Source: Gluconacetobacter sacchari (GTDB taxonomy: Bacteria > Pseudomonadota > Alphaproteobacteria > Acetobacterales > Acetobacteraceae). Taken from it: a DNA stretch of 64,000 nt. Shown piece by piece: positions 32,827-45,144 of this stretch. Position numbers and translations under genes: made by a program. Each line of letters begins with the position of its first letter. Within the stretch, counting starts at the first letter, position 1. Below the pieces are notes generated by a model. It did not search any database. It saw only the letters and a list, made by a program, of their open reading frames with translations, and was not told the DNA's origin. Where the stretch lies: assembly GCF_014174255.1 (NCBI RefSeq), contig NZ_JABEQJ010000020.1, positions 24,275 through 88,274 of the forward strand, written 5' to 3'.

Positions 32827-33519
32827 CTACTCCGCGACTTTCTTTCGGCCGGGGGGCGGGTTCGCAGCCAGCAGATCGAACGAAATGTCGACATCCTTTT
32901 CAAAGGCCGCGATCGTCGCGTCGAGGTCACGCCTGCCCAGCGCGGCGAGCATCGCATGATGATGAACCAGGCCCCGCCCCGGATTAAGGTCGTTCAGCGC
33001 CGTGGCATGGCCGAGATAAGGTCCGAATTGCAGCCACAGACTTTCGATGATGGGCATCAGAACGACCGAACGAGACAGTCTGTACAGTTGGAAATGAAAG
33101 CGCGCATTCGCTTCGACTGCCTCAGGAATGTTTCCCGTCCCTTCCAGCGAAACCTGATACGCCAGGAGCGCCCGGATCTCATCGAGGTCGGGCGCCGTCA
33201 GATGGTCGAATGCCGCCCGAATGGCGAATCCCTCCACTGTCTTTCGGACACGCCGCAGGTCCTCCAGTCGGTCCTCAGACAGTACCGGCACGACGATCGA
33301 TCGGTTGGGCGCGTTTTCCAGTGCCCGTTCGGCCACCAACCGCGACAGAGCTTCCCGCACGGGCATCGCGCTGCTGCCATACGCGGCAGCCACCTCCATC
33401 AGCTTGAAGAGATGCCCCGGAAAAAAAAAGCCGCACATGATGCGGTGACGGAGATCCGTGTAGATCTGCTCCTGTATCGTCGAGCGCTCGACAGGTTTTA
33501 TCGTGCCGTTCAATCCCAT
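32827..33519 (-). CDS. GntR-family regulator (FCD subfamily)
   Basis: 230 residues plus stop from the ATG at 33519 (purine-rich GAGAAG just upstream); an earlier ATG at 33558 lacks a ribosome-binding site. The winged helix-turn-helix (QIYTDLRHRIMCGFFFPG, then GSSAMPVREALSRLVAERAL) is followed by an all-helical FCD effector domain (EDLRRVRKTVEGFAIRAAF, NARFHFQLYRLS, HHHAMLAAL), whose histidines bind a metal in relatives. It should repress the downstream TIGR04076/aldo-keto reductase genes until a small carboxylate-like effector binds (inference). Confidence 0.88.
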   Translation of the reverse strand: MGLNGTIKPVERSTIQEQIYTDLRHRIMCGFFFPGHLFKLMEVAAAYGSSAMPVREALSRLVAERALENAPNRSIVVPVLSEDRLEDLRRVRKTVEGFAIRAAFDHLTAPDLDEIRALLAYQVSLEGTGNIPEAVEANARFHFQLYRLSRSVVLMPIIESLWLQFGPYLGHATALNDLNPGRGLVHHHAMLAALGRRDLDATIAAFEKDVDISFDLLAANPPPGRKKVAE

Positions 33520-33645
33520 TCCCGCTTCTCTCGCCCGTCCTGACAGCCCATCATGCACATCGTATCATGACATGGCCGAGGGCAAACAGCGCAGGCCGTC
33601 CACACGGCTTTCGGTCATCGCAATCCCGTTCGCCGAAATATTATT

Positions 33646-33674
33646 TTGACTCCATATCATTCTTGCCGGATAAT
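33646..33674 (+). promoter_or_regulatory. Sigma-70-like promoter of the nitrate assimilation operon
   Basis: TTGACT (33646-33651), 17 bases, then GATAAT (33669-33674). This is a near-consensus promoter in an otherwise GC-rich area. Transcription would start around 33681 and run through both hexaloop hairpins before the transporter gene, leaving a leader of about 150 bases. Confidence 0.65.
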
Positions 33675-33697
33675 AATTCCGAAGCACGCTCCAGCAT

Positions 33698-33776
33698 CGG
33701 TTCCCGCCAATGACGGCGGACCAACCGGGGGCGACGGCGCACACGACGAGACACCAGGTGGTCAAGGACGGCCATC
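33698..33776 (+). promoter_or_regulatory. Candidate NasT (ANTAR) RNA target: two hexaloop stem-loops
   Basis: Hairpin 1: outer stem CGGTT/AACCG and inner stem CCGCC/GGCGG around hexaloop AATGAC (33698-33727). Hairpin 2: stem GGTGGTC/GGCCATC (two wobble pairs) around hexaloop AAGGAC (33757-33776). ANTAR regulators bind paired hairpins whose six-base loops have A at position 1 and G at position 4, and both loops fit. The operon itself encodes NasT. The linker is longer than in textbook examples, and no U-tract terminator is obvious, so the switch mechanism is open. Confidence 0.6.
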
Positions 33777-33830
33777 ATGCCCGCAGAGGGCGCGCCCACC
33801 CGATGCCAGGCGGGCGCTGGATGCTGCACC

Positions 33831-35051
33831 GTGGACAGACAATTCTTCAAAGCCGGCAACCCGCGCACGCTCCTTGCGGCGTTTCTCTATTTCGACGCAT
33901 CCTTCATGGTCTGGGTGCTCCTCGGGCCGCTGGGCATCGCGATCGCGCATGACCTGCACCTGAATGCCGGGCAGAAGGGCTTCCTGGTCGCCATACCGGT
34001 GCTGGCGGGCGCGCTGTTCCGCGTCGCCGCCGGCGCGCTGGTCGATCATTTCGGCCCCCGCCGCGTCGCCATCCTGATGCAGCTCCTGGTCATCGCCGGC
34101 CTGGCCGCGACCTGGGTCGCCGCCCCCCACACCTATTCGGGGCTTTTCCCCCTCGCCCTGGTCCTCGGCGTGGCGGGCGCCTCCTTCGCCGTCGCCCTGC
34201 CCCTCGCCTCCGGCTGGTATCCGCCGCATTATCAGGGCACGGCGCTGGGCATCGCCGGCGCCGGCAATTCCGGCACCGCGCTCGCCGCCCTGTTCGCCCC
34301 CGGCCTGGCGATCCTCTATGGCTGGCTCAACGTGGTCGGCCTGGCCACCCTGCCGCTGGCCGCCGTCCTCGTCGCCTTCCTGTTCCTGGCCAAGGAGCCG
34401 CCCCGCCGCCCCAGCGCCGGCCTCGTCGCATGGCTGCCGGTCCTGAAAAAACCCGATTGCTGGGCGCTGATGTTCTTCTACAGCGTCACCTTCGGCGGCT
34501 TCGTCGGCCTCGCCTCCTTCCTCACCATCTATTTCAACGACCAGTACGGCCTGCCGCCGGCGGTAGCGGGAGGCTGCACGGCGCTGGTCGTGTTCGTGGG
34601 CTCGTTCGTCCGTCCCCTGGGCGGCGCCCTGGCCGACCGCATCGGCGGCGACCGCGCGCTGTTCCTCCTCTACGCCGCCGCCGCCGCCGTCTTCGCCCTG
34701 ATCGGCTACGGCCTGCCCACCATCTGGCTGGCCTTCCCCGCCTTCTTCCTCGGCATGCTCCTGCTGGGGCTGGGCAACGGCGCGGTGTTCCAGATCGTGC
34801 CGACACGCTTCCCCCACCAGGTCGGCATCCTGACCGGGCTGGTGGGCATGAGCGGCGGCGTGGGCGGCTTCTACCTCGCCTCGTCGCTCGGCGCGGCCCG
34901 CCAATCGACCGGGTCGTACGGTCCCGGCTTCCTGGCCTTCGCGGGCATCGCCCTGCTCGCCCTCGGCTGCGTGTCCGTCTGCCGCCGCCGCTGGAAGGCC
35001 GCGTCCGCCGCCCCGCTGCCCGGCGATACGGAACTTCCCGCCGCCCTCTGA
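33831..35051 (+). CDS. NarK-type nitrate/nitrite MFS transporter
   Basis: 406 residues from the GTG at 33831; an ATG at 33777 would add 18 unusual residues and sits directly against leader hairpin 2. About 12 membrane helices. AFLYFDASFMVWVLLGPLG is the hallmark start of nitrate/nitrite porters, and GNSGTALAALFAPGLA and GMSGGVGGFYLASSLG are the two glycine-rich nitrate signature motifs. It imports nitrate, and possibly exports or imports nitrite, across the inner membrane. First gene of the assimilation operon; the porin gene follows 29 bases later. Regulation through the upstream leader is likely. Confidence 0.92.
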   Translation: MDRQFFKAGNPRTLLAAFLYFDASFMVWVLLGPLGIAIAHDLHLNAGQKGFLVAIPVLAGALFRVAAGALVDHFGPRRVAILMQLLVIAGLAATWVAAPHTYSGLFPLALVLGVAGASFAVALPLASGWYPPHYQGTALGIAGAGNSGTALAALFAPGLAILYGWLNVVGLATLPLAAVLVAFLFLAKEPPRRPSAGLVAWLPVLKKPDCWALMFFYSVTFGGFVGLASFLTIYFNDQYGLPPAVAGGCTALVVFVGSFVRPLGGALADRIGGDRALFLLYAAAAAVFALIGYGLPTIWLAFPAFFLGMLLLGLGNGAVFQIVPTRFPHQVGILTGLVGMSGGVGGFYLASSLGAARQSTGSYGPGFLAFAGIALLALGCVSVCRRRWKAASAAPLPGDTELPAAL

Positions 35052-35080: not shown

Positions 35081-36739
35081 GTGCCCCACACCCCGCCCGG
35101 CGCGCGCCAGACGCGTGCCCTCGCTCGCCCGCATCGCCTCCACGCCCATGCCGCGCTGCTGGCCGCCGCCATCCTGGCCCGACCGGCCCACGCCGCCACC
35201 CCGGCCGACCGCACGGCACCGCCCGCGACCAGCCAGAAGAAGGCGGAAAGAAAGACCCCGCCCGCCGCCGCCAGGCCGCCCCACACTAGCAACTGGGGCG
35301 TCTTCAACGCCGGCAAGGGCGCCGCCGCCGGTTTCGGCGCCATGAACGGCTACGGCCAGGCCCGCTGGGCGGAGGATTGGAGCGACCTCGCCACCACGCC
35401 CCCGGCGCAACGCCGGCAGGACTGGTTCAACCGCCTCAAATATATCCGCCTGACCGACAAGGGCGATATCTGGCTGTCGATCAGCGGCGAGGAACGGCTG
35501 CGCTATATTTTCGAAAACCAGCCGATGATGGGCACGGCCGGCAAGACCAACGCCAGCCGCCTGCTGCTGCGCAACCTGTACGGCGCCGACCTGCATCTGG
35601 GCGACCATGTCCGCGCCTACGCCGAATTTCTCTGGGGCGTCGCCGGCGGCAGCAATTATTACGGCTACCAGACCGGCATCCAGCGCGAGCGGCTCGACCT
35701 CCAGCAGGGCATCCTGGAGGTCAAGGGCAAGCTCCTCGGCGCCAGGATGGGCGCGATCGGCGGCCGGCAGGTGTTCCTCGACGCCCCCATCTCAATGCAG
35801 TCCGCCCGCGACCTGCCCAACGTGCAGCAGACCTGGGACGGCGTCCGGGGCTACGCGGTATGGAAATCCTTCCGCCTCGACCTGTTCGATTTCATGCAGA
35901 CCAACAAGCTGCCGCGCAACGTCTTCGCCGACGGCACCAACTACAATGCCCGGATGTACGGCGCCTATACGTCCACGTCGCTGCCCGCCTTCACCATCCT
36001 GGGGCAGAAGGCGCACATCTTCGCCGACGTCTTTTTCCTCGGCTATCTCTTCGGCGGCCCCGCCGCATCCCTGCCGCTGGCCAGGACCGGCGCGGCCCAG
36101 GCCGGCTCGACCCGCCGCGACAATATCGGCACCCGCCTGTGGGGCACCGCCGGCCCCTTCGATGCCAGCCTGACGGGCGTGTTCCAGGGCGGCGACTTCC
36201 GCCCGGCGCACAATGCGGGGCCGACCCGCGCGGTTCGCGCCTACGCCGTCAACGGCGTGGCGAACTGGAACGCAAGCGGCCTGCCCGGCAAGCCCTCGCT
36301 CGGCATCCAGGCCGACCTGTTCTCGGGCGGGTCCTACCACAGCAAGGACGGCGCCGTCGGCACCTTCGCCACGCCCTATTTCCCGCTGCCTTATTACAAT
36401 GACGTCACGCTGGCCCTCACCTCGCAGAATCTCATCGGCGTCGGCCCCGTCATCACCGCCACGCCATTTTCCACCCTTCACCTGCGGCTGCATGTACCGG
36501 TATTCTGGCGCGACAGCACGCAGGACGCCGTCTACGGCACGGGCAAGATCTATGCGTGGCGAAACACCCTGCATGGCGGGTTCATCGGCGTCACACCCCA
36601 GGCACAGGCGGCATGGCACTTCGCGCCGCACTGGACATGGACGCACGACATCGCGGGCCTGGCCGCCTCGCAGGGCATGCGACAGGCCGGCGCCAAAAGC
36701 GGCGTGTTCTACATGCAGACCGTGGAATTCAAGTTCTGA
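35081..36739 (+). CDS. Outer-membrane porin, alginate-export domain family
   Basis: 552 residues from a GTG at 35081 with ACGGA upstream. This start gives an export signal (AALLAAAILARPAHA-AT). After a Lys/Pro-rich spacer, the region from about residue 85 on fits the alginate-export beta-barrel domain (SISGEERLRYIFENQ, RLLLRNLYGADLHLGDHVRA, GRQVFLDAPIS), ending in a C-terminal Phe (FYMQTVEFKF) typical of outer-membrane barrels. It lies inside the nitrate operon, so it is probably a channel that lets nitrate or nitrite cross the outer membrane and not an alginate exporter (inference; no alginate genes nearby). Confidence 0.85.
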   Translation: MPHTPPGARQTRALARPHRLHAHAALLAAAILARPAHAATPADRTAPPATSQKKAERKTPPAAARPPHTSNWGVFNAGKGAAAGFGAMNGYGQARWAEDWSDLATTPPAQRRQDWFNRLKYIRLTDKGDIWLSISGEERLRYIFENQPMMGTAGKTNASRLLLRNLYGADLHLGDHVRAYAEFLWGVAGGSNYYGYQTGIQRERLDLQQGILEVKGKLLGARMGAIGGRQVFLDAPISMQSARDLPNVQQTWDGVRGYAVWKSFRLDLFDFMQTNKLPRNVFADGTNYNARMYGAYTSTSLPAFTILGQKAHIFADVFFLGYLFGGPAASLPLARTGAAQAGSTRRDNIGTRLWGTAGPFDASLTGVFQGGDFRPAHNAGPTRAVRAYAVNGVANWNASGLPGKPSLGIQADLFSGGSYHSKDGAVGTFATPYFPLPYYNDVTLALTSQNLIGVGPVITATPFSTLHLRLHVPVFWRDSTQDAVYGTGKIYAWRNTLHGGFIGVTPQAQAAWHFAPHWTWTHDIAGLAASQGMRQAGAKSGVFYMQTVEFKF

Positions 36740-36777: not shown

Positions 36778-39672
36778 ATGACCGGCACCGGCAACATCGT
36801 CATCATCGGCAACGGCATGGTCGGCCATTACTGCGCCGAGCAACTGGTCATGCACAGCCTGCATCAGGACCACGCCATCCACGTCTTCGGCGAGGAACTG
36901 CACGACGCCTACGACCGCGTGCATCTCACCGCCTACATGACCGGGCAGGATGCCGCCGCCCTCTCCCTGCATCAGGAGGATTTCCACACCGCCCACGGTC
37001 TCACGCTCCATCGCGGCGTCCGCGTCACGGCGATCGACCGCGCGGCGCGCACCATCGAAAGCAGCGAAGGCACCCTGCCGTACCACACGCTCATCATCGC
37101 CACCGGCTCCACGCCCTTCGTGCCGTCCGTGCCCGGCAACAGCGGCACCGCCGGCCTGGTCTACCGCACGCTGGACGACCTGGACCAGATCCGCGCGGCC
37201 GCCGCGGGCGCCGCGCGCGGCACCGTCATCGGCGGCGGCCTGCTGGGGCTGGAGGCCGCCAACGCGCTGGCCGGCCTGGGCCTGGCCACCACGGTCGTCG
37301 AATTCGCCCCCCGCCTGATGCCCGTCCAGCTCGATGAAGAGGGCGGACAGGCCCTGAAGCACCGCATCGAGGCATTGGGCCTCACGGTGCTGACCGGCCA
37401 CGCCACGCAGCAGATCGTCGCCGGCGAGACATGCCGCCACCGCCTGGTCTTTTCCGACGGCGGCACGCTGGAAACCGACCTCGTGGTCTTCTCCGCCGGC
37501 ATCCGCCCGCAGGACCGCCTGGCCCGCGCGTGCGGGCTCCCCCTCGGTCCGCGCGGCGGCATCGTCATCGACGACACCTGCCGCACCGCCGACCCGGCCA
37601 TCTTCGCCGTCGGCGAATGCGCCGCGTGGAACGGCCAGGTCTTCGGCCTGGTCGCGCCCGGCTACGCCATGGCCCGCACCGTCGCCGCCCACCTGGCGGG
37701 CGAGGAAGCCGCCTTCACCGGCGCCGACATGTCCACCAAGCTCAAGCTGCTCGGCGTCGATGTCGGCTCCATCGGCGACGCCCATGGCGCCACGCCTGGC
37801 AGCCGCAGCTACCGCTTCATCGGCGAGGCCGAGGGCTCCTACCGCCGCCTGGTCCTCTCGGGCGACGGCACGCGGGTCATCGGCGCCGTGCTGGTCGGCG
37901 ACAATTCCTATTACGACACGATCCTGCAATATGTGCAGAACGCCATCAAACCGCCCGCCGATCCGGCGGCGCTGATCCTGCCGCGCGGCGAGGGCGCGGA
38001 ATTGCTGGGCGCCGACTCCCTGCCCGACACGGCCATGATCTGCTCCTGCCACAACGTCACCAAGGGCGCGATCCGCGCCGCCATCGACGACGGCAGCACC
38101 GATCTCGCCGCCCTCAAGCAATGCACCAAGGCCAGCACCGGCTGCGGCGGCTGCGCGGCCCTGCTGAAAAATGTGTTCGAGACCGAGCTGGAAGCTCGCG
38201 GCATCACCGTCGACCACAGCCTGTGCGAGCATTTTTCCCATACCAGGCAGGCGCTTTATTCGCTGGTCCGCGTCCACGGCATCCGGACGTTCGAGGACCT
38301 GATGGCCCGGCACGGCAATGGCGGCCTGGGCTGCGACATCTGCAAGCCCGCCATCGGCTCGATCCTCGCCTCCGCCTGGAACAAGCCGATCACCGACCCG
38401 CTCTACATCCCGTTGCAGGACACGAACGACACGTTCATGGCCAACATGCAGAAGAACGGCACCTATTCGGTCGTCCCGCGCATCGCCGGCGGCGAAATCA
38501 CGCCCGACCGCCTGATCGTGCTCGGGCAGGTCGCGAAGAAATACGGCCTCTACACCAAGATCACCGGCGGCCAGCGCATCGACCTGTTCGGCGCCCAGCT
38601 TCACCAACTGCCCGACATCTGGACCGAACTGCTCGACGCGGGGTTCGAAACCGGCCACGCCTACGGAAAATCGACCCGCACCGTCAAATCCTGCGTCGGC
38701 AGCACCTGGTGCCGCTACGGCGTGCAGGACAGCGTCGCCAAGGCGCTGGACCTGGAAAACCGCTACAAGGGCCTGCGCTCGCCCCACAAGCTGAAATTCG
38801 CCGTCTCCGGCTGCACGCGCGAATGCGCCGAGGCCCAGAGCAAGGATGTCGGCATCATCGCCACCGAAAACGGCTGGAACCTCTATGTCTGCGGCAATGG
38901 CGGCATGCGCCCCCGCCACGCCGAACTGTTCGCGACCGACCTCGATGCCGAAACCCTGGTGCGCTATATTGATCGTTTCCTGATGTTCTATATCCGCACG
39001 GCCGACAGGCTCCAGCGCACCTCCGTCTGGCGCGAGAACCTCGAAGGCGGGCTGGACTATCTGCGCGACGTCATCATCCATGATTCGCTGGGCATCTGCG
39101 CGGAACTGGAACAGCAGATGCAGTCGGTGGTCGACCAGTATCATTGCGAATGGCGCGACGCGCTGAACGACCGCGACAAGCTCAGGCGCTTCCGCACCTT
39201 CGTCAACGACGCCCGGCCGGACCCGAACGTCCGCACCCTGCCCGAGCGCGACCAGACCCGCCCCGCCGACAACCTGCCCGAGACCGCGGCCGGGGCCGGC
39301 CCGGCGGACTGGACCGATCTCTGCGCCCAGGCCGACCTGGTCGCCCGCTCCGGCGTCGTCGCCTGGCATGACGGCAGCCAGGTCGCCCTGTTCTACCTGC
39401 CCGAATCAGGGACCGACGCCGCCCATGTCTACGCCATCGACAATCACGACCCGTTCTCCAACGCCAACGTCATCGGGCGCGGCCTGATGGGCGACCTCAA
39501 GGGGCAGCGCATCGTGGCCTCCCCGCTCTACAAGCAGCATTTCCGCCTGGAAGACGGCCAGTGCCTCGAAGACTCCTCCATCCGCCTGCGGACATGGGAC
39601 ACCCGGCTCCGCGACGGCAAGGTGCAGATCCGGGCGAAACTCCCGGCGACACCCGACCTGGTCCCCGCCTGA
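36778..39672 (+). CDS. nirB: NirB-NirD fusion: NADH-dependent assimilatory nitrite reductase
   Basis: 964 residues from the ATG with AAAGGAAG upstream. The N-terminal half is the FAD/NAD(P)H reductase (IVIIGNGMVGHYCAE). The BFD-type [2Fe-2S] domain (ICSCHNVTKGAIRAAI, then STGCGGC) starts near 422. The siroheme-[4Fe-4S] domain has cysteines in CVGSTWC (about 639-645) and GCTRECAEAQ (about 680-684). Residues about 855-964 are the NirD Rieske-like small subunit (WTDLCAQADLVARSGVVAWH), normally a separate protein. It reduces nitrite to ammonium in the cytoplasm. The stop is six bases before the nitrate reductase gene. Confidence 0.93.
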   Translation: MTGTGNIVIIGNGMVGHYCAEQLVMHSLHQDHAIHVFGEELHDAYDRVHLTAYMTGQDAAALSLHQEDFHTAHGLTLHRGVRVTAIDRAARTIESSEGTLPYHTLIIATGSTPFVPSVPGNSGTAGLVYRTLDDLDQIRAAAAGAARGTVIGGGLLGLEAANALAGLGLATTVVEFAPRLMPVQLDEEGGQALKHRIEALGLTVLTGHATQQIVAGETCRHRLVFSDGGTLETDLVVFSAGIRPQDRLARACGLPLGPRGGIVIDDTCRTADPAIFAVGECAAWNGQVFGLVAPGYAMARTVAAHLAGEEAAFTGADMSTKLKLLGVDVGSIGDAHGATPGSRSYRFIGEAEGSYRRLVLSGDGTRVIGAVLVGDNSYYDTILQYVQNAIKPPADPAALILPRGEGAELLGADSLPDTAMICSCHNVTKGAIRAAIDDGSTDLAALKQCTKASTGCGGCAALLKNVFETELEARGITVDHSLCEHFSHTRQALYSLVRVHGIRTFEDLMARHGNGGLGCDICKPAIGSILASAWNKPITDPLYIPLQDTNDTFMANMQKNGTYSVVPRIAGGEITPDRLIVLGQVAKKYGLYTKITGGQRIDLFGAQLHQLPDIWTELLDAGFETGHAYGKSTRTVKSCVGSTWCRYGVQDSVAKALDLENRYKGLRSPHKLKFAVSGCTRECAEAQSKDVGIIATENGWNLYVCGNGGMRPRHAELFATDLDAETLVRYIDRFLMFYIRTADRLQRTSVWRENLEGGLDYLRDVIIHDSLGICAELEQQMQSVVDQYHCEWRDALNDRDKLRRFRTFVNDARPDPNVRTLPERDQTRPADNLPETAAGAGPADWTDLCAQADLVARSGVVAWHDGSQVALFYLPESGTDAAHVYAIDNHDPFSNANVIGRGLMGDLKGQRIVASPLYKQHFRLEDGQCLEDSSIRLRTWDTRLRDGKVQIRAKLPATPDLVPA

Positions 39673-39678
39673 CACGTC

Positions 39679-42600
39679 ATGGCGAAGGACGAGATCCGCT
39701 CGGTCTGCCCCTATTGCGGGGTCGGCTGCGGCATCATCCTCGACGTGGAAGACGGCAGGATCGCCAGGGTGCGCGGCGACGCCGCGCACCCGGCGAATGC
39801 CGGCCGGCTGTGTACCAAGGGCAGTTCGTGCGACAAGCCCCTGTCCTCGCCCCACAGGCTGGCCAACGCCGCCCTGCGCGCCCAGCGCGGCCGCGAGCCC
39901 ACGCCCGTCCCGCTCCATCGGGCGATCGAGGCCACGGCCACGCGCCTGCGGCAGATCCTCGACACGCACGGCCCCGACGCCATCGCCTTCTACGTCTCCG
40001 GCCAGATGTCGCTGGAGGCGCAGTATCTCATCAACAAGCTGGCGAAGGGCTACATCCGCAGCCAGCATATCGAATCCAATTCCCGCCTGTGCATGGCCGC
40101 CGCCGGCAGCGGCTACAAGCTCTCGCTCGGCGCCGACGCCCCACCCGGCAGCTACGAGGATTTCGACTGCACCGACCTGTTCTTCGTCATCGGCGCGAAC
40201 ATGGCCGACTGCCATCCGATCCTGTTCCTGCGCCTGATGGACCGCAAGCGGGCGGGCGCGAAGCTCATCGTCGTCGATCCCCGCCGCACCGCGACGGCCG
40301 AAAAGGCCGATCTGTACCTGCCCATCCGTCCCGGCACCGACCTCGCCCTGCTCAACGGCCTGCTGCATCTCCTGGTCCGCAACGGCGCCATCGATCCCGC
40401 CTTCATCGCGCAGGCGACCACGGGGTGGGACGCCATGCCCGCGTTCCTGGCCGACTACCCGCCGGATAGCGTCGCCGCCCTCACCGGCCTGCCGGCGGCC
40501 GACATCCTGACCGCCGCCCGCTGGATCGCCGAAGCCGGCGCATGGATGAGCCTGTGGACCATGGGCCTCAACCAGAGCCTGACCGGCACGTGGAACGTCA
40601 ACGCCCTGTGCAACCTGCACCTGGCCACCGGCACGATCTGCCGTCCCGGCTGCGGCCCCTTCTCGCTGACCGGCCAGCCCAACGCCATGGGCGGGCGCGA
40701 GATGGGCTATATGGGCCCCGGCCTGCCCGGCCAGCGCAGCGCCCTGGTCGCCGCCGACCGCGCCTTCGCCGAACGCCAGTGGGCTCTCCCCCCCGGCACG
40801 CTGCGCGACGCGGGCGGCACCGGCGCGATCGCGATGTTCGATGCCATGGAGCGCGGCGCCATCCGCGCCTGCTGGGTCATCTGCACCAACCCCGTCGCCA
40901 CCGTCGCCAACCGCGACCACGTCGTCCGCGCGCTGAAAGCCGCCGAATGCGTGATCGTGCAGGACGCCTTCGCCGACGCCGAGACCACACGCCACGCCGA
41001 CATCCTGCTCCCCGGCGCCCTGTGGGCCGAGGCCGACGGCGTGCAGGTCAATTCCGACCGCACCATGACCCTGGCCCGCCAGGCCGTCGCCCCGCCCGGC
41101 GAGGCCATGGCGGACTGGCGGATCATCGCCCAGGTCGCCTGCGCCATGGGCTTCGCGGACGGTTTCTCCTTCACCTCGGCCGCCGAAATCTTCGCCGAGG
41201 CCAGCCGCTTCACCAATCCCGCGACCGGCTACGACATCGCCGGCATCTCCCACCGCCGCCTCCACGCGGGCCCCGTCCAATGGCCCTGCGCCGAAGGCGA
41301 CACCGCCTCCCGCCACCCGATCCGCTACCGCTCCCCGACCTCGGCCGCACCCATCTTCCCCGCCCCTGGCGGCCGCGCCGTCTTTCATGCCCGTCCCTGG
41401 ATGCGCCCCCGGGAATGGCCCGACGAAACCCACCCCTTCGTGCTCGACACCGGGCGCCTGCAACATCAGTGGCACACTCTGACCAAGACCGGCCGCGTCG
41501 ACAGCCTCAACCGTCTCAATCCCGGCCCGTTCGTCGAAATCGCCACCGAGGACGCCCGCGCGCTCGGCCTCGCGGCGGGCGATGCCGTCCGCATCACATC
41601 CCGCCGGGGCAGCATCACCCTGCCGGCCCGCATCACGCCGGCCATCCGCCCCGGCACCTGCTTCGCGCCCTTCCACTGGAACGACCGGTTCGGCGACGAC
41701 ATCGCCGTCAACACGCTCACCTCCGACGCCGTCGATCCGATTTCCCTCCAACCCGGCTTCAAGCTCTGCGCCGTCGCGCTGGAACGCATCCCCGCCGCCC
41801 CACCCGCTCCCCAGGGACAGAACGACATGGAACCCGGCCCGCTCGCCCGGCATCTCGGCCTGGCCCCGCCCGAACCCCTGGCGCTCGGCGAAGACGGCCG
41901 CGCCTGGCTGTCCGGCTTTCTCGAAGGGCTGCGCCTCGCCCCGCCCGCGCCCGGCACCCTGCCGCTGATCCCCGCCAACGCGCCGCTCGACCCGCGTGCC
42001 CGCGCGCATGTCGGCGGCCTGCTGGCCGGCCTCTACAGCCGCGCCGAGGCCGCCGCCCCGCCCCCCGCGCTCCGCGTCTGGTGGGCCTCGCAGACCGGCC
42101 GCGCCGAGGCCCTCGCCGCCACCATCGCCACCTGGCTGCGCGAGGCCGGGCATACGGTCAGCCTCGCCTGCCTGGATAGCTGCGAATCCGGCGATCCCGG
42201 CCCCGGCCGCGCCATCTTCGTCGTCTCCACCTTCGGCGACGGCGACGCGCCTGACTGCGCCGCCCCGTTCTGGAGCGCCCTGCGCGCCCGTCAGTCCCCG
42301 CTGACCGACCTCACCTGCGCCGTCCTCGCGCTCGGCGATTCCTCCTATGCCAGCTTCTGCGGCTTCGGCCGCGCGCTGGATGCGCGCCTGCGCGCGCTGG
42401 GCGCCACCATGCTGCTGGACCGCACGGATTGCGAACCGGATCTCGACGACACGGTCGAATCCTGGCGCGGCACGCTGCTGACCGCCCTCGGCGCCCGTAC
42501 GGACGCCGAACCGCCCGCCCCGCCCCAGGCACCATCCCTCGGCACCCGCGACCTGCCCGCCATCGCCCGCCTCGTCCTCAACGAACGCCTGTGCGGTCCC

Positions 42601-43599
42601 GGATCGGACCCAGGGTCGGACCCGGGATCGGAGAAGGACACCCGCCGCATCGGCCTCGATCTGGGCGCCACCGACCTCGCCTGGCAACCGGGCGATGCGC
42701 TGGGCATCTGGCCCTGCAACCCGCCCGAGCATGTCGAAACCGTCCTCGCCGCGCTACGCCTGCCCGACGACACGCCGATCGTCCTGCGCGGCCACGGCAC
42801 CGTCGGACTGCGCGAAGCGCTGCGCCGCCATCTCGACCTCTCCCGCCCCAACCCCGCCCTGCTCGCCGCCCTGGGCCGGACCGAAGGCGGCTTTCTCCCC
42901 GACCTGCTGCGCGACGCGGTCCTGACGGTCGCGGCGCGGGACATCCCGCCCCTGTTCCGGCGCATGCAGCCTCGCCTCTATTCCATCGCCTCCTCCCCCA
43001 GGATCTCCGGCCGGATCGTGGAACTGACCATGGGCGTCAATCGCTCCCCCTGGCCCGGCCTCTGCTCCAACTGGCTCGCCGCGCTGGCGGAAGGCGGCGA
43101 GGTACCGGTCTTCGTCCAGCCGACCTCCCATTTCCACCTGCCGCGCGACGACGACGCCCCGATCGTCATGATCGGCCCGGGCACCGGCATCGCCCCTTTC
43201 CGCGCCTTCCTCCAGGAGCGCGCGGCCCGCGGAAGCACCGGCCGCAACTGGCTGTTCTTCGGCGAACGCCACGCCGGCCAGGGCTTCTACTACCGGCAGG
43301 AACTCGACAGCTACCGCGCCGCCGGCTGCCTGACCCGGCTCGACACCGCCTTCTCGCGCGACCAGGCCACCCGCATCTACGTTCAGGACCGGATGGAGGA
43401 AGCCGGGGCCGAATTGTGGGACTGGCTGCAAGCCGGCGCCTTCGTCTATGTGTGTGGGGACGCCACCCGCATGGCGCGGGATGTCGATGCCGCCCTGCAC
43501 AGGATCATCGCCCGCCATGGCGGCCTGTCCGCCCCGGAGGCCGCCACGTTCGTGACCGGACTGACGCGGGAGAACCGCTATCTGCGCGATGTCTACTGA
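39679..43599 (+). CDS. Nitrate reductase fused to CysJ-like flavoprotein reductase
   Basis: 1306 residues. Residues 1-730 are an assimilatory nitrate reductase: [4Fe-4S] cysteines C10, C13, C17 and C45, the molybdenum-ligating cysteine in ESNSRLCMAA (C138), and a molydopterin dinucleotide-binding end (FVLDTGRLQHQWHTLTKTGR). From about 798 a flavodoxin-like FMN domain follows (WWASQTGRAEALAATIATWL). Then come an FAD domain (RLYSIASSP near 1098) and an NADPH domain (GPGTGIAPFRAFLQER near 1165), ending ENRYLRDVY as in CysJ. The chain can thus pass NADPH electrons to nitrate by itself, replacing NasB. Its last 11 bases overlap nasT. Confidence 0.93.
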   Translation: MAKDEIRSVCPYCGVGCGIILDVEDGRIARVRGDAAHPANAGRLCTKGSSCDKPLSSPHRLANAALRAQRGREPTPVPLHRAIEATATRLRQILDTHGPDAIAFYVSGQMSLEAQYLINKLAKGYIRSQHIESNSRLCMAAAGSGYKLSLGADAPPGSYEDFDCTDLFFVIGANMADCHPILFLRLMDRKRAGAKLIVVDPRRTATAEKADLYLPIRPGTDLALLNGLLHLLVRNGAIDPAFIAQATTGWDAMPAFLADYPPDSVAALTGLPAADILTAARWIAEAGAWMSLWTMGLNQSLTGTWNVNALCNLHLATGTICRPGCGPFSLTGQPNAMGGREMGYMGPGLPGQRSALVAADRAFAERQWALPPGTLRDAGGTGAIAMFDAMERGAIRACWVICTNPVATVANRDHVVRALKAAECVIVQDAFADAETTRHADILLPGALWAEADGVQVNSDRTMTLARQAVAPPGEAMADWRIIAQVACAMGFADGFSFTSAAEIFAEASRFTNPATGYDIAGISHRRLHAGPVQWPCAEGDTASRHPIRYRSPTSAAPIFPAPGGRAVFHARPWMRPREWPDETHPFVLDTGRLQHQWHTLTKTGRVDSLNRLNPGPFVEIATEDARALGLAAGDAVRITSRRGSITLPARITPAIRPGTCFAPFHWNDRFGDDIAVNTLTSDAVDPISLQPGFKLCAVALERIPAAPPAPQGQNDMEPGPLARHLGLAPPEPLALGEDGRAWLSGFLEGLRLAPPAPGTLPLIPANAPLDPRARAHVGGLLAGLYSRAEAAAPPPALRVWWASQTGRAEALAATIATWLREAGHTVSLACLDSCESGDPGPGRAIFVVSTFGDGDAPDCAAPFWSALRARQSPLTDLTCAVLALGDSSYASFCGFGRALDARLRALGATMLLDRTDCEPDLDDTVESWRGTLLTALGARTDAEPPAPPQAPSLGTRDLPAIARLVLNERLCGPGSDPGSDPGSEKDTRRIGLDLGATDLAWQPGDALGIWPCNPPEHVETVLAALRLPDDTPIVLRGHGTVGLREALRRHLDLSRPNPALLAALGRTEGGFLPDLLRDAVLTVAARDIPPLFRRMQPRLYSIASSPRISGRIVELTMGVNRSPWPGLCSNWLAALAEGGEVPVFVQPTSHFHLPRDDDAPIVMIGPGTGIAPFRAFLQERAARGSTGRNWLFFGERHAGQGFYYRQELDSYRAAGCLTRLDTAFSRDQATRIYVQDRMEEAGAELWDWLQAGAFVYVCGDATRMARDVDAALHRIIARHGGLSAPEAATFVTGLTRENRYLRDVY
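42600..42631 (+). repeat. In-frame 12-base tandem repeat in the flavoprotein domain
   Basis: Two and a half copies of a GGATCGGACCCA-like unit encode GSDPGSDPGSEKD in a surface loop at the start of the FAD-binding part. The unit keeps the reading frame, so copy-number change would only lengthen the loop by four residues per unit. Confidence 0.7.
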
Positions 43600-44209
43600 C
43601 GCTCCCCCCGGCACGGCCCGTCCGCCGATGACCGTTCTGGTCGCCGACGGCAACACTCGCCGCGCCCGCGCCCTTTCTGACGATCTGCGGGCCGATCCGT
43701 CACTGCATGTCCTCTCCGTCCCGGCGGGCATGGCCCTGATCGACGCGGTACGGCAACATCAGCCCGACGTGGTACTGGTCGACATGGGCCGCGCGGACCG
43801 CGACGCGCTGGACAGCATCCGCGCCCTGTCCCAGCCCGCGCTCGAACGCCCCGTGGCCCTGTTCGTCGATCGCGACGATGTCCAACTGATGGAGACCGCC
43901 TTCGATATCGGCATCTGTTCCTACAATGTCCTGGACGCACCACCCGACGACGTCAAACCCCTGCTGCGCGCCGCGATCGCCCTGTACAGCCGCTTCCAGC
44001 GCACCCGCGGCGAACTGACCGAGGCGCAACGCAAGCTGGCGGAACAGAAGCTGGTCGATCAGGCGAAGAGACTCTTCATGAAGAACGAGAACGCAACCGA
44101 AGATCAGGCCTATCGCTGGTTCCGCCGCCGCGCCATGCAGTCCGCGCGCCGCATCGCCGCCGTCGCCGCCGACTACCTGTCCGCCCATGACCGGAACGAC
44201 GCGCCATGA
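43589..44209 (+). CDS. nasT: NasT-type response regulator with ANTAR RNA-binding domain
   Basis: 206 residues. A CheY-like receiver (about 14-130, MTVLVADGNTRRARAL, VVLVDMGRADRDAL) is followed by an ANTAR domain (EQKLVDQAKRLFMKNENATE, then AYRWFRRRAMQSARRIAAVA). NasT binds leader RNA as an antiterminator and is held inactive by NasS when nitrate or nitrite is absent (established for NasS/NasT in Azotobacter, Paracoccus and Bradyrhizobium). The gene overlaps the reductase by 11 bases and nasS by four (ATGA). Its likely RNA target lies in the leader at 33698-33776. Gene order nasT-nasS is the reverse of the usual one. Confidence 0.92.
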   Translation: MSTDAPPGTARPPMTVLVADGNTRRARALSDDLRADPSLHVLSVPAGMALIDAVRQHQPDVVLVDMGRADRDALDSIRALSQPALERPVALFVDRDDVQLMETAFDIGICSYNVLDAPPDDVKPLLRAAIALYSRFQRTRGELTEAQRKLAEQKLVDQAKRLFMKNENATEDQAYRWFRRRAMQSARRIAAVAADYLSAHDRNDAP

Positions 44210-45144
44210 CCCACGCCCTGCGGATCGGCCTGCTGCGCCTCACCGACAGCGCGCCCGTCATCATCGCCCGCAATCACGGCCTGTTCGCGCAACACGGCAT
44301 CGCGGCCGAGATCGTGGTCTCCCCCTCCTGGTCCAACATCGCCGACGGACTGGCCTGGCGAACACTCGACGCCGCCGTCATTTTCCCCCCCCTGGCCATG
44401 ATGACGGCCCTGGGGCGCCGTGGCCACGCCGCCTCCCTGCGCCCGCTCTGCACGCTCAGCCGCGGCGGCAACACGCTGGTCCTGCGCGGCACCAACCCGC
44501 TCGCCACGCCATGGCCGACCGGCCCCGCCGGGCACCAGGCCTTCGCGCAATGGCAACGCGGCCTGGGCCGCCGGCCCCGCCTCGCGGTGGTCCATATGTA
44601 TTCCACCCACCTGCTCATCCTGCGCCGTTTTCTGCGCATGATCGGGGTGGATATGGACAGCGGGATCGAACTCGTCGTCATGCCCCCTGCCGACATGATC
44701 AGCGCATTGGCCGACCGCGCCATCGACGGCGGCTGCGTCGGTCCCTCATGGGGCACCGAAGCCTGCCTGCGCGGCCTCGGCTTCCTGGTCGGCGGCTCCT
44801 CCACCATCGTGCCCGGCCATCTCGAAAAACTCCTCGTCGTTTCCGATGCGGCTGCCGGCCAGGCCGACCGCCTCAAGGCCGCCCTGGGCGAGGCCGTGTC
44901 GTACTGCCGCGCGCCAGCGAACCGGCACGCCATCGCGCAGGGCCTCGCCCTCCCGCCCGAGGAGGGCGGCCTCGCCCTGCCCGCCCGCGCGACCTTCGCG
45001 ACGCTTGACGAGAAAACGACCCCCGAACCGGTCACCTTCGTCGCGGAAGAGGTCACGGAGGCCGATTTCGACTGGATCACCCAGGACATGTTCGATCTTG
45101 GCTGGATCGATGAAAGCGAGCGCGAGGCCGGCCCGAAACGGTGA
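44206..45144 (+). CDS. nasS: NasS-type nitrate/nitrite sensor (NrtA-like, cytoplasmic)
   Basis: 312 residues of the NrtA/CmpA periplasmic-binding-protein family. It has no signal peptide: the protein starts MTHALRIGLLRLTDSAPVII and enters the fold at once. Family segments: ARNHGLFAQHGIAAEIVVS, GLAWRTLDAAVIFPPLAMM and GCVGPSWGTEACLRG. The missing signal and the coupling to nasT (ATGA overlap) identify it as the cytoplasmic sensor that binds nitrate or nitrite and releases NasT. Last gene of the operon, with 15 bases before the convergent ABC ATPase gene. Confidence 0.9.
   Translation: MTHALRIGLLRLTDSAPVIIARNHGLFAQHGIAAEIVVSPSWSNIADGLAWRTLDAAVIFPPLAMMTALGRRGHAASLRPLCTLSRGGNTLVLRGTNPLATPWPTGPAGHQAFAQWQRGLGRRPRLAVVHMYSTHLLILRRFLRMIGVDMDSGIELVVMPPADMISALADRAIDGGCVGPSWGTEACLRGLGFLVGGSSTIVPGHLEKLLVVSDAAAGQADRLKAALGEAVSYCRAPANRHAIAQGLALPPEEGGLALPARATFATLDEKTTPEPVTFVAEEVTEADFDWITQDMFDLGWIDESEREAGPKR

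What the first reader, a model, noticed from the sequence alone, without database searches (positions are those of the whole stretch)
33646..33830. Candidate ANTAR riboregulatory leader of the nitrate operon
A near-consensus promoter is followed by two stem-loops with hexaloops AATGAC and AAGGAC, both with the A1/G4 required by ANTAR proteins, and the operon encodes NasT and NasS. The linker between stems is unusually long, there is no U-tract terminator, and the second hairpin touches the transporter start region. The switch may act on translation or through Rho.
Basis: partly seen in the sequence, partly recalled or inferred. Interest (0 to 1): 0.72.

Follow-up and report, generated by a model that had tools for sequence, protein, structure and literature searches.

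The report
Nitrate-operon RNA switch anchored to start codon
The nitrate-use genes of this acetic acid bacterium begin with an RNA leader that carries two hairpins of the kind read by ANTAR proteins, conserved across its relatives and followed by further conserved hairpins but no recognisable terminator, so the ANTAR protein encoded alongside (NasT) would likely switch the genes on by freeing the ribosome site rather than by preventing premature transcription stop.

Summary
The Gluconacetobacter-like window has P1 (33704-33719) and P2 (33757-33776), both with A1/G4 hexaloops, between a conserved -35 promoter and narK, in a gene cluster encoding the genome's only ANTAR match, NasT. All 30 examined acetic-acid-bacteria narK leaders have both hairpins; on 24 of them the stems change compensatorily (85.3% of cells paired, 37-49% when slid). 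Two corrections: narK starts at GTG 33831, not beside P2, and the element continues through P3 and a strongly covarying P4 to the Shine-Dalgarno. None of the 30 has a T-run over 4, whereas 5 of 6 comparator NasT leaders show a hairpin with U-tract. P2 lies 64-72 nt from the start codon in all 30, and 66-67 nt from a small ORF leading into nirB in 8 of 8 second copies. The linker's 3' half pairs with the ribosome site better than expected (clade-swap P = 0.003), but dominantly only in most of the A. pasteurianus group. Best reading: a NasT-ANTAR leader that likely controls translation initiation; how NasT would open the site is untested. New variant of a known kind; Rho or an unrecognised terminator remains possible.

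The parts
33646..33674 (+). sigma70-type promoter TTGACT-17-GATAAT
   Evidence: 10 of 12 consensus; TTTGAC at the -35 in 29 and TTTGAA in 1 of 30 leaders; TSS near 33681 inferred, not mapped
33704..33719 (+). P1, ANTAR hairpin with hexaloop AATGAC
   Evidence: A1/G4 hairpin found in 30 of 30 leaders; 5 of 7 modelled pairs with double changes
33720..33756 (+). 37-nt linker; its 3' half is the candidate anti-RBS strand
   Evidence: linker 31-43 nt in 25 and 24 nt in 3 of the 28 leaders where one search placed P1 correctly; eut linkers 5-12 nt (PMC3369931 passages)
33757..33776 (+). P2, ANTAR hairpin with hexaloop AAGGAC
   Evidence: loop CAA-N-G invariant in 29 of 29 aligned leaders; 6 of 8 pairs with double changes
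33779..33791 (+). P3, small hairpin GCCC-GCAGA-GGGC
   Evidence: 92.7% of cells paired, 2 of 4 pairs with double changes
33792..33817 (+). P4, hairpin GCGCCC...GGGCGC ending at the Shine-Dalgarno
   Evidence: all 9 modelled pairs show double changes; swap test P about 1e-4
33742..33757 (+). P0, strand A: linker stretch predicted to pair with the RBS and start codon
   Evidence: predicted fold; clade-swap P = 0.003, shuffle P = 0.013
33817..33833 (+). P0, strand B: Shine-Dalgarno to start codon
   Evidence: as strand A
33818..33821 (+). Shine-Dalgarno-like TGGA, 9 nt before GTG
   Evidence: GG[AGT]/AGG at -16..-5 in 30 of 30
33831..35051 (+). narK-like nitrate/nitrite MFS transporter, start GTG
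   Evidence: PF07690 E 3.8e-40, TIGR00886 E 5.9e-78 but below its curated cut-off; start position aligned across relatives
35081..36739 (+). alginate-export-type outer membrane protein (start inferred)
   Evidence: PF13372 E 2.8e-27; start read
36778..39672 (+). fused NirB-NirD nitrite reductase
   Evidence: TIGR02374 and TIGR02378 above cut-off; start ATG read
39679..43599 (+). nitrate reductase fused to flavodoxin and FAD/NAD reductase domains
   Evidence: PF00384, PF00258, PF00667, PF00175
43589..44209 (+). NasT, ANTAR response regulator (the predicted ligand of P1/P2)
   Evidence: PF03861 46.9 bits; only ANTAR match in the genome at E 0.001
44206..45144 (+). NasS-like nitrate sensor (NMT1-like, 312 aa)
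   Evidence: PF13379 E 3.1e-41; the name NasS rests on its place next to NasT

Best explanation
This is a conserved leader RNA before narK in the narK-nirBD-nas-nasT-nasS gene cluster, with two ANTAR-type hairpins, P1 and P2, and two further conserved hairpins, P3 and P4, that likely lets NasT, which nitrate would free from NasS, switch on translation initiation at narK rather than prevent transcription termination. Shown: the hairpins, their covariation, the fixed distance to the start codon, the P4-Shine-Dalgarno junction, the lack of a U-tract, and NasT as the genome's only ANTAR match. Inferred from the NasS-NasT literature: nitrate releases NasT, and NasT binds P1 and P2. Predicted: without NasT the 3' half of the long linker pairs with the Shine-Dalgarno/start-codon region (helix P0), closing a multi-branch structure over P2, P3 and P4; NasT holding P1 and P2 together would pull the linker out of P0 and open the ribosome site. 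In the Acetobacter pasteurianus group the same element stands a second time before a small ORF that ends at the nirB start, where NasT would act on nirB through translational coupling. How NasT binding opens P0 is the least supported step, because P0 and P2 can form together.
For: A hairpin with A1/G4 hexaloop at both places in 30 of 30 leaders (the search required A1/G4; P1 set by hand in 2) and no T-run over 4; independently, an alignment sliced only by distance from the start keeps P2 CAA-N-G in 29 of 29 and P1 G4 in 29 of 29, A1 in at least 90%. 22 of 28 pairs with compensatory changes, 85.3% cells paired against 36.7-48.8% when slid, 0/500 shuffles. P2 loop to start codon 64-72 nt in 30 of 30 narK leaders and 66-67 nt to the start of the small ORF in 8 of 8 nirB-side copies; that ORF's stop lies 2 nt before the nirB ATG in 7 and overlaps it in 1 of 8. 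Comparator NasT leaders: P2 to start 98-292 nt, hairpin with U-tract in 5 of 6 (hairpins judged by eye). Linker-RBS coevolution: swap P = 0.003, and 3 other region pairings gave 0.09, 0.63 and 0.97; composition-controlled P = 0.013, own energy -10.9 against -8.9 +/- 0.8 (10 representatives). Expected linker-RBS pairs 5.3 against 1.0 +/- 2.3 in 50 control ORFs, whose highest is 12.6; start codon unpaired 0.22 against 0.45 +/- 0.24. NasT is the only ANTAR match in the genome and is found in 8 of the 11 genomes with strong model hits. Precedent: an engineered photoreceptor circuit that relieves a cis-repressed mRNA and induces translation (PMC11381354, abstract).
Against: No conserved fold that competes with P2 was found: forbidding P2 leaves P3 and P4 in place and raises P0 only slightly. 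P0 dominates only in most of the A. pasteurianus group; in the five Komagataeibacter leaders it is weak or absent (0-1.7 expected pairs), and most single-sequence energies do not beat shuffles. Whole-RBS accessibility is the same as in control ORFs (0.33 against 0.36 +/- 0.13). The control ORFs are unannotated ORFs of more than 300 aa, so they are a rough yardstick. The leaders are related, so the tests do not rest on independent samples. The small ORF shows no amino-acid-level constraint, and frame +1 is also open in 8 of 8. The nirB-side copies carry a hairpin with U5-6 that could be an intrinsic terminator (three folded). NasT targets in the papers of which I saw passages are described as controlled at transcription (PMC6759348, PMC3795266, PMC5424462).
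Confidence: 0.5

Rival explanations
1. NasT-ANTAR leader acting on transcription through Rho: without NasT the untranslated leader and downstream genes are terminated by Rho; NasT binding blocks Rho or promotes translation that blocks it.
For: No T-run over 4 in 30 of 30 leaders. NasT systems elsewhere are described as acting at transcript level. It is compatible with a translational primary switch, since translational repression commonly exposes mRNA to Rho (general knowledge).
Against: Leaders are not C-rich and G-poor (mean C 0.26, G 0.31), unlike typical rut sites (general knowledge). The fixed start-codon distance and the P4-Shine-Dalgarno junction have no obvious role in a purely Rho-based switch.
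Confidence: 0.2
2. Classical ANTAR transcription antitermination with an atypical terminator that the U-tract criterion misses.
For: 5 of 6 comparator NasT leaders have a hairpin with U-tract. The nirB-side copies have a hairpin plus U5-6 that shares P4's 3' arm.
Against: No T-run over 4 from P1 to the start in any of 30 narK leaders. No conserved helix is mutually exclusive with P2.
Confidence: 0.17
3. The hairpins are conserved but NasT binding represses or stabilises the message instead of activating it.
For: In B. diazoefficiens narK, with predicted NasT hairpins, is up-regulated in a nasT mutant (PMC6759348 passages). Mycobacterial ANTAR binding represses translation (PMC8164766 section 7).
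Against: NasT is described as a positive regulator of nas genes in Paracoccus (PMC3795266 abstract passage). P2 here does not overlap the Shine-Dalgarno.
Confidence: 0.08
4. The hexaloop pair is a chance feature, or P2's AAGGA is merely the Shine-Dalgarno of ATG 33777.
For: AAGGAC precedes ATG 33777 at Shine-Dalgarno distance in the window.
Against: ATG 33777 is followed by stops in close relatives L031, L032 and L074 and is absent from most others. The loop AAGGAC occurs in only 2 of 30 leaders, while A1/G4 is kept. Covariation.
Confidence: 0.02

Closest known systems
NasS-NasT controlled nasA leader of Paracoccus denitrificans (PMC5424462, PMC3795266; passages read)
   Same: nasT-nasS beside a nitrate-assimilation operon; NasT binds the leader RNA; a leader hairpin (HI) is needed for nitrate growth
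   Different: described there as transcription termination control; here P2 is tied to the start codon with P3 and P4 between, and no U-tract
EutV-eut leaders of Enterococcus (PMC3369931, PMC8934654; passages read)
   Same: two hairpins, hexaloops with A1/G4
   Different: linkers of 5-12 nt, where lengthening abolished or cut antitermination, and an intrinsic terminator; here 24-43 nt and none seen
NasT-type leaders in other Proteobacteria examined here (Methylocystis, Methylocella, Roseateles, Leisingera, Blastomonas, P. yeei)
   Same: A1/G4 hairpins between nasS and the nitrate genes; Leisingera and Blastomonas also have distant loops (48 and 43 nt; in Blastomonas the pair was chosen by me among four hairpins)
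   Different: 5 of 6 have a hairpin with U-tract; P2 is 98-292 nt from the start; so a long linker alone is not unique
Actinobacterial ANTAR RNAs overlapping RBS or start codon (PMC8164766; passages and section 7 read)
   Same: predicted translational rather than termination control
   Different: there the ANTAR hairpin itself covers the RBS and binding represses; here P2 is over 50 nt upstream and activation is proposed
NmPAL riboptoregulator (PMC11381354; abstract read; that NmPAL is a PAS-ANTAR-LOV protein is recalled)
   Same: protein binding opens a cis-repressed mRNA and induces translation
   Different: engineered circuit, light instead of nitrate

Membership tests
ANTAR target RNA | two stem-loops with at least 3 bp and six-base loops | tested here: met
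   P1 5 bp and P2 7 bp in the window; P1 and P2 covary in relatives. In L037/L038 P2 has only 2 contiguous pairs before a mismatch
ANTAR target RNA | A at loop position 1 and G at position 4 in both loops | tested here: met
   30 of 30 leaders, though the search required it and P1 was set by hand in two; alignment of 29 leaders agrees
ANTAR target RNA | short linker between hairpins (5-12 nt in eut) | tested here: not met
   37 nt here, 24-43 in the 28 leaders measured. The feature is not general: the published search model allows a variable linker (PMC3369931), and Leisingera/Blastomonas loops are 48/43 nt apart
ANTAR target RNA | cognate ANTAR protein in the genome | tested here: met
   one ANTAR match, NasT in the same gene cluster
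ANTAR target RNA | bound by the ANTAR protein | not testable with these tools
   needs binding assay
ANTAR antiterminator (intrinsic) | P2 mutually exclusive with a U-tract terminator | tested here: not met
   no T-run over 4; no conserved helix competing with P2
translational (RBS-sequestering) leader | conserved pairing that hides Shine-Dalgarno/start codon | tested here: inconclusive
   P0 swap P = 0.003, shuffle P = 0.013, but dominant only in most of one group

The most novel reading that the evidence does not exclude
A natural nitrate-responsive ANTAR switch that activates translation: NasT binding to P1-P2 frees a ribosome site held by the long linker, and in Acetobacter the same cassette stands a second time in front of a nirB-coupling ORF, so an ANTAR leader has moved from stopping polymerase to controlling ribosomes.
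Probability: 0.4. Interest if true: 0.72.

Novelty: new variant of a known kind. Interest (0 to 1): 0.52.

Why it matters
ANTAR target RNAs of Proteobacteria are described as antiterminators (PMC8164766 section 7). An ANTAR leader without a recognisable terminator, anchored to the start codon and with its own covarying P3-P4 module, would show how the same protein-RNA recognition was rewired to another output. It gives a simple experimental system (acetic acid bacteria) for the open question of why ANTAR RNAs need two hairpins and how far apart they may be.

Tried and rejected
Rfam: no relevant family; the 4 matches in 33000-34500 are all below gathering score. RF03000, named from memory as a possible ANTAR family, is LOOT and is irrelevant.

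P2 as Shine-Dalgarno of ATG 33777: rejected.

Helix competing with P2: none conserved. P3 arm swap test: uninformative, arms nearly invariant (P = 0.53).

Small-ORF protein constraint: not found, synonymous and non-synonymous changes alike in three frames.

Model hits with E above 1e-5 (20 of 31 genomes) were not counted. Of two such loci looked at, L092 is a narK leader and L089 did not fold into P1/P2 and looks like coding sequence; the rest were not looked at. BLAST of the leader against plasmids: no match.

Rows dropped: of the 47 loci, 29 plus the window entered the 30-leader set. L040 and L051 (both later matched by the model, 93.2 bits) and L056, L058-L065, L068-L071, L073, L075, L077 (more distant or partial) did not. 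24 of the 30 built the model; L063, present in the first alignment, was left out. The automatic search misplaced P1 in L066 and L072; one search set it by hand, so the linker figures cover 28. The ten clades were set by hand.

Full report
WHAT IS THERE. The window lies in a Gluconacetobacter-like genome of the acetic acid bacteria: its nearest named relatives in the genome collection are Gluconacetobacter species, with 87-89% NarK identity. On the + strand a gene cluster, presumably an operon, runs narK-like transporter, alginate-export-type outer membrane protein, fused NirB-NirD, nitrate reductase fused to a flavodoxin-type reductase, NasT (ANTAR) and a NasS-like protein. A TTGACT-17-GATAAT promoter lies at 33646-33674, and P1 and P2 follow at 33704-33719 and 33757-33776. 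A pair of such hairpins with the right spacing occurs twice on one strand of 64 kb and not on the other; the second pair is inside an ORF.

START CODON. The ORF caller begins narK at ATG 33777, next to P2. Of the 47 relatives, 46 held the protein motif used to locate the start; the codon at the place of GTG 33831 is GTG or ATG in 42 of them (not in L069, L071, L073, L075). Close relatives L031, L032 and L074 carry stops between the two sites. The leader therefore most likely runs to 33830, and 54 nt lie between P2 and the start.

CONSERVATION. I collected 30 narK leaders (window plus 29 of the 47 loci; dropped rows are listed under Tried and rejected). Each has an A1/G4 hexaloop hairpin at both places; the search required A1/G4, and P1 was placed by hand in L066 and L072. 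Independently of that search, an alignment of 29 leaders cut only by distance from the start keeps CAA-N-G in the P2 loop and G4 of P1 in 29 of 29, and A1 of P1 in at least 90%. Loop-to-loop distance is 42-60 nt, and the P2 loop lies 64-72 nt from the start codon. On 24 leaders, 28 pairs in P1, P2, P3 and P4 give 85.3% paired cells; sliding the 3' partners gives 36.7-48.8%. 22 pairs have changes on both sides (shuffles 17.0 +/- 1.7, 0 of 500 as high), and the covariation score is 0.511 (shuffles 0.292). All nine P4 pairs show double changes. P3 (GCCC-N5-GGGC) is more conserved in sequence. A Shine-Dalgarno-like GG[AGT] or AGG at -16 to -5 is present in 30 of 30, immediately after P4 in the window.

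DISTRIBUTION. A covariance model of the element searched in 249 family genomes hits 31 at E 0.01 and 11 at E 2.6e-6 or better, species used to build it among them. At E 1e-20 NasT is found in 8 of those 11 and in 73 of 249 overall. The three without are G003, whose narK match is split over two frames and ends at residue 364 of 424, G267 and G040. In the own genome there is one element and one ANTAR protein. Of eight further Acetobacteraceae loci with NarK identity of 56-71% (L010-L017), three (L012, L014, L016) show a pair of A1/G4 hairpins 54-62 nt apart by the simple scan; four show one and one shows none.

SECOND COPIES. In 8 Acetobacter-type loci, all those of the A. pasteurianus group that reach so far (L040 is too short), the model hits again about 3 kb downstream, before nirB. 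There the P2 loop lies 66-67 nt from an ATG in 8 of 8. This ATG opens an ORF of 45-54 codons whose stop is 2 nt before the nirB ATG in 7 and overlaps it in 1. The ORF shows no amino-acid constraint and frame +1 is open too, so its being translated is inferred from position. In the three of these copies that I folded, a hairpin that includes the AUG is followed by U5-6 and shares bases with P4's 3' arm (z-scores -2.3, -0.7, -1.3); it could be an RBS-hiding hairpin or an intrinsic terminator.

IS THERE A TERMINATOR? No T-run over 4 occurs from P1 to the start in any of 30 narK leaders, and T4 occurs in five. I fetched eight nasT regions from plasmid records and scanned six from other families; S. 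meliloti has no nitrate gene directly after nasS in the stretch and was not scanned, and A. pasteurianus belongs to the family under study. A hairpin with U-tract follows the ANTAR hairpins in 5 of 6 (not P. yeei; T-runs listed by the script, hairpins judged by eye). P2-to-start distance is 98-292 nt and loop spacing 19, 21, 21, 25, 43 and 48 nt; in Blastomonas, which has four such hairpins, I chose the pair next to the U-tract. Long spacing alone is therefore not unique; the missing U-tract and the tie to the start codon are what set this family apart.

MECHANISM. ViennaRNA ensembles form P1, P2, P3 and P4, and forbidding P2 brings up no conserved rival helix. The window's minimum-energy fold adds a helix, P0, between the linker's 3' half and the Shine-Dalgarno/start region; that 180-nt fold as a whole is not exceptional (z -1.5). 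A swap test between ten hand-set clades gives P = 0.003 for this pairing, P below 5e-5 for P2 and 1e-4 for P4 as positive controls, and 0.63, 0.97 and 0.09 for three other pairings. Shuffling the linker strand of ten representatives gives P = 0.013. P0 is dominant in most of the A. pasteurianus group (12.8-17.6 expected pairs in five leaders, about 2 in the two A. okinawensis strains) and modest or absent elsewhere. The start codon is less accessible than in 50 control ORFs (0.22 against 0.45 +/- 0.24), but through different partners, and the whole RBS is not. Single-sequence energies mostly do not beat shuffles. I commit to translation initiation as the likeliest point of control (0.5), with Rho (0.2) and an unrecognised terminator (0.17) as rivals. 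The step from NasT binding to opening of P0 is inferred.

LITERATURE. Eut leaders have linkers of 5-12 nt and lose induction or antitermination when lengthened (PMC3369931, PMC8934654; passages). In Paracoccus a mutation in the HI hairpin severely lowers transcription and blocks nitrate growth while one in HII does not lower it (PMC5424462; passages). NasS-NasT dissociation by nitrate and NasT binding to nasA leader RNA are shown in PMC3795266 (passages). Actinobacterial ANTAR RNAs are predicted to act on translation (PMC8164766; passages and section 7). An engineered photoreceptor circuit activates translation (PMC11381354; abstract). Among the rows listed by my searches (listings and abstract starts seen, 20 of 27 and 20 of 984 rows) I saw no paper on an ANTAR leader in acetic acid bacteria; the library lacks most subscription journals.

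Noticed in passing
G000 contig C10:78682-78840 (L117); genus genomes: In the assembly of the window's genome only a 53-position rpoN remnant with a stop is found and no sigma54 core-binding domain, while 11 of the 13 other genus genomes have full or near-full DNA-binding-domain matches and 2 have none. The nitrate promoter here is sigma70-type.
   Followed up: partly
L010, L013, L016, L017, L058-L065, L069-L071, L073, L075, 139-185 nt upstream of narK: 17 of 21 more distant narK leaders have a sigma54-like GGC[AC]-N-TGC element (loose pattern), against none in the 30 acetic-acid-bacteria leaders (stricter pattern), suggesting a promoter swap from sigma54 to sigma70.
   Followed up: partly
L034 6434, L035 6295, L036 5673, L037 9195, L038 9196, L039 9167, L051 9159, L076 9173: Small ORF (45-54 codons) between a second ANTAR leader and nirB, ending at the nirB start; no amino-acid constraint.
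   Followed up: yes
L058-L062, L064, L065, L070: Rhodopila-type leaders put a P2-like hairpin close before the start codon and have a strong hairpin within the linker; an upstream ACTCCGCG can pair with CGCGAGT of the Shine-Dalgarno region in some (read by eye).
   Followed up: partly
L115 (Acetobacter pasteurianus plasmid pAPA03-020): The nas genes lie on a plasmid typed as conjugative; narK and nirB are not in its (incomplete) gene table and an IS5 transposase is, so the operon may be interrupted there.
   Followed up: no
G003 (narK at C12:66531-67621): The strain keeps a strong leader match, but its narK match is split over two frames and ends at residue 364 of 424, and no NasT is found: apparent decay of the system.
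   Followed up: no
window 35081-36739: An alginate-export-type outer membrane protein sits in the nitrate gene cluster between narK and nirB, also annotated in Acetobacter, and a porin holds that place in Blastomonas.
   Followed up: no
window 33540-33568: A second promoter-like site CTGACA-17-TATCAT, 10 of 12, upstream of the leader.
   Followed up: no
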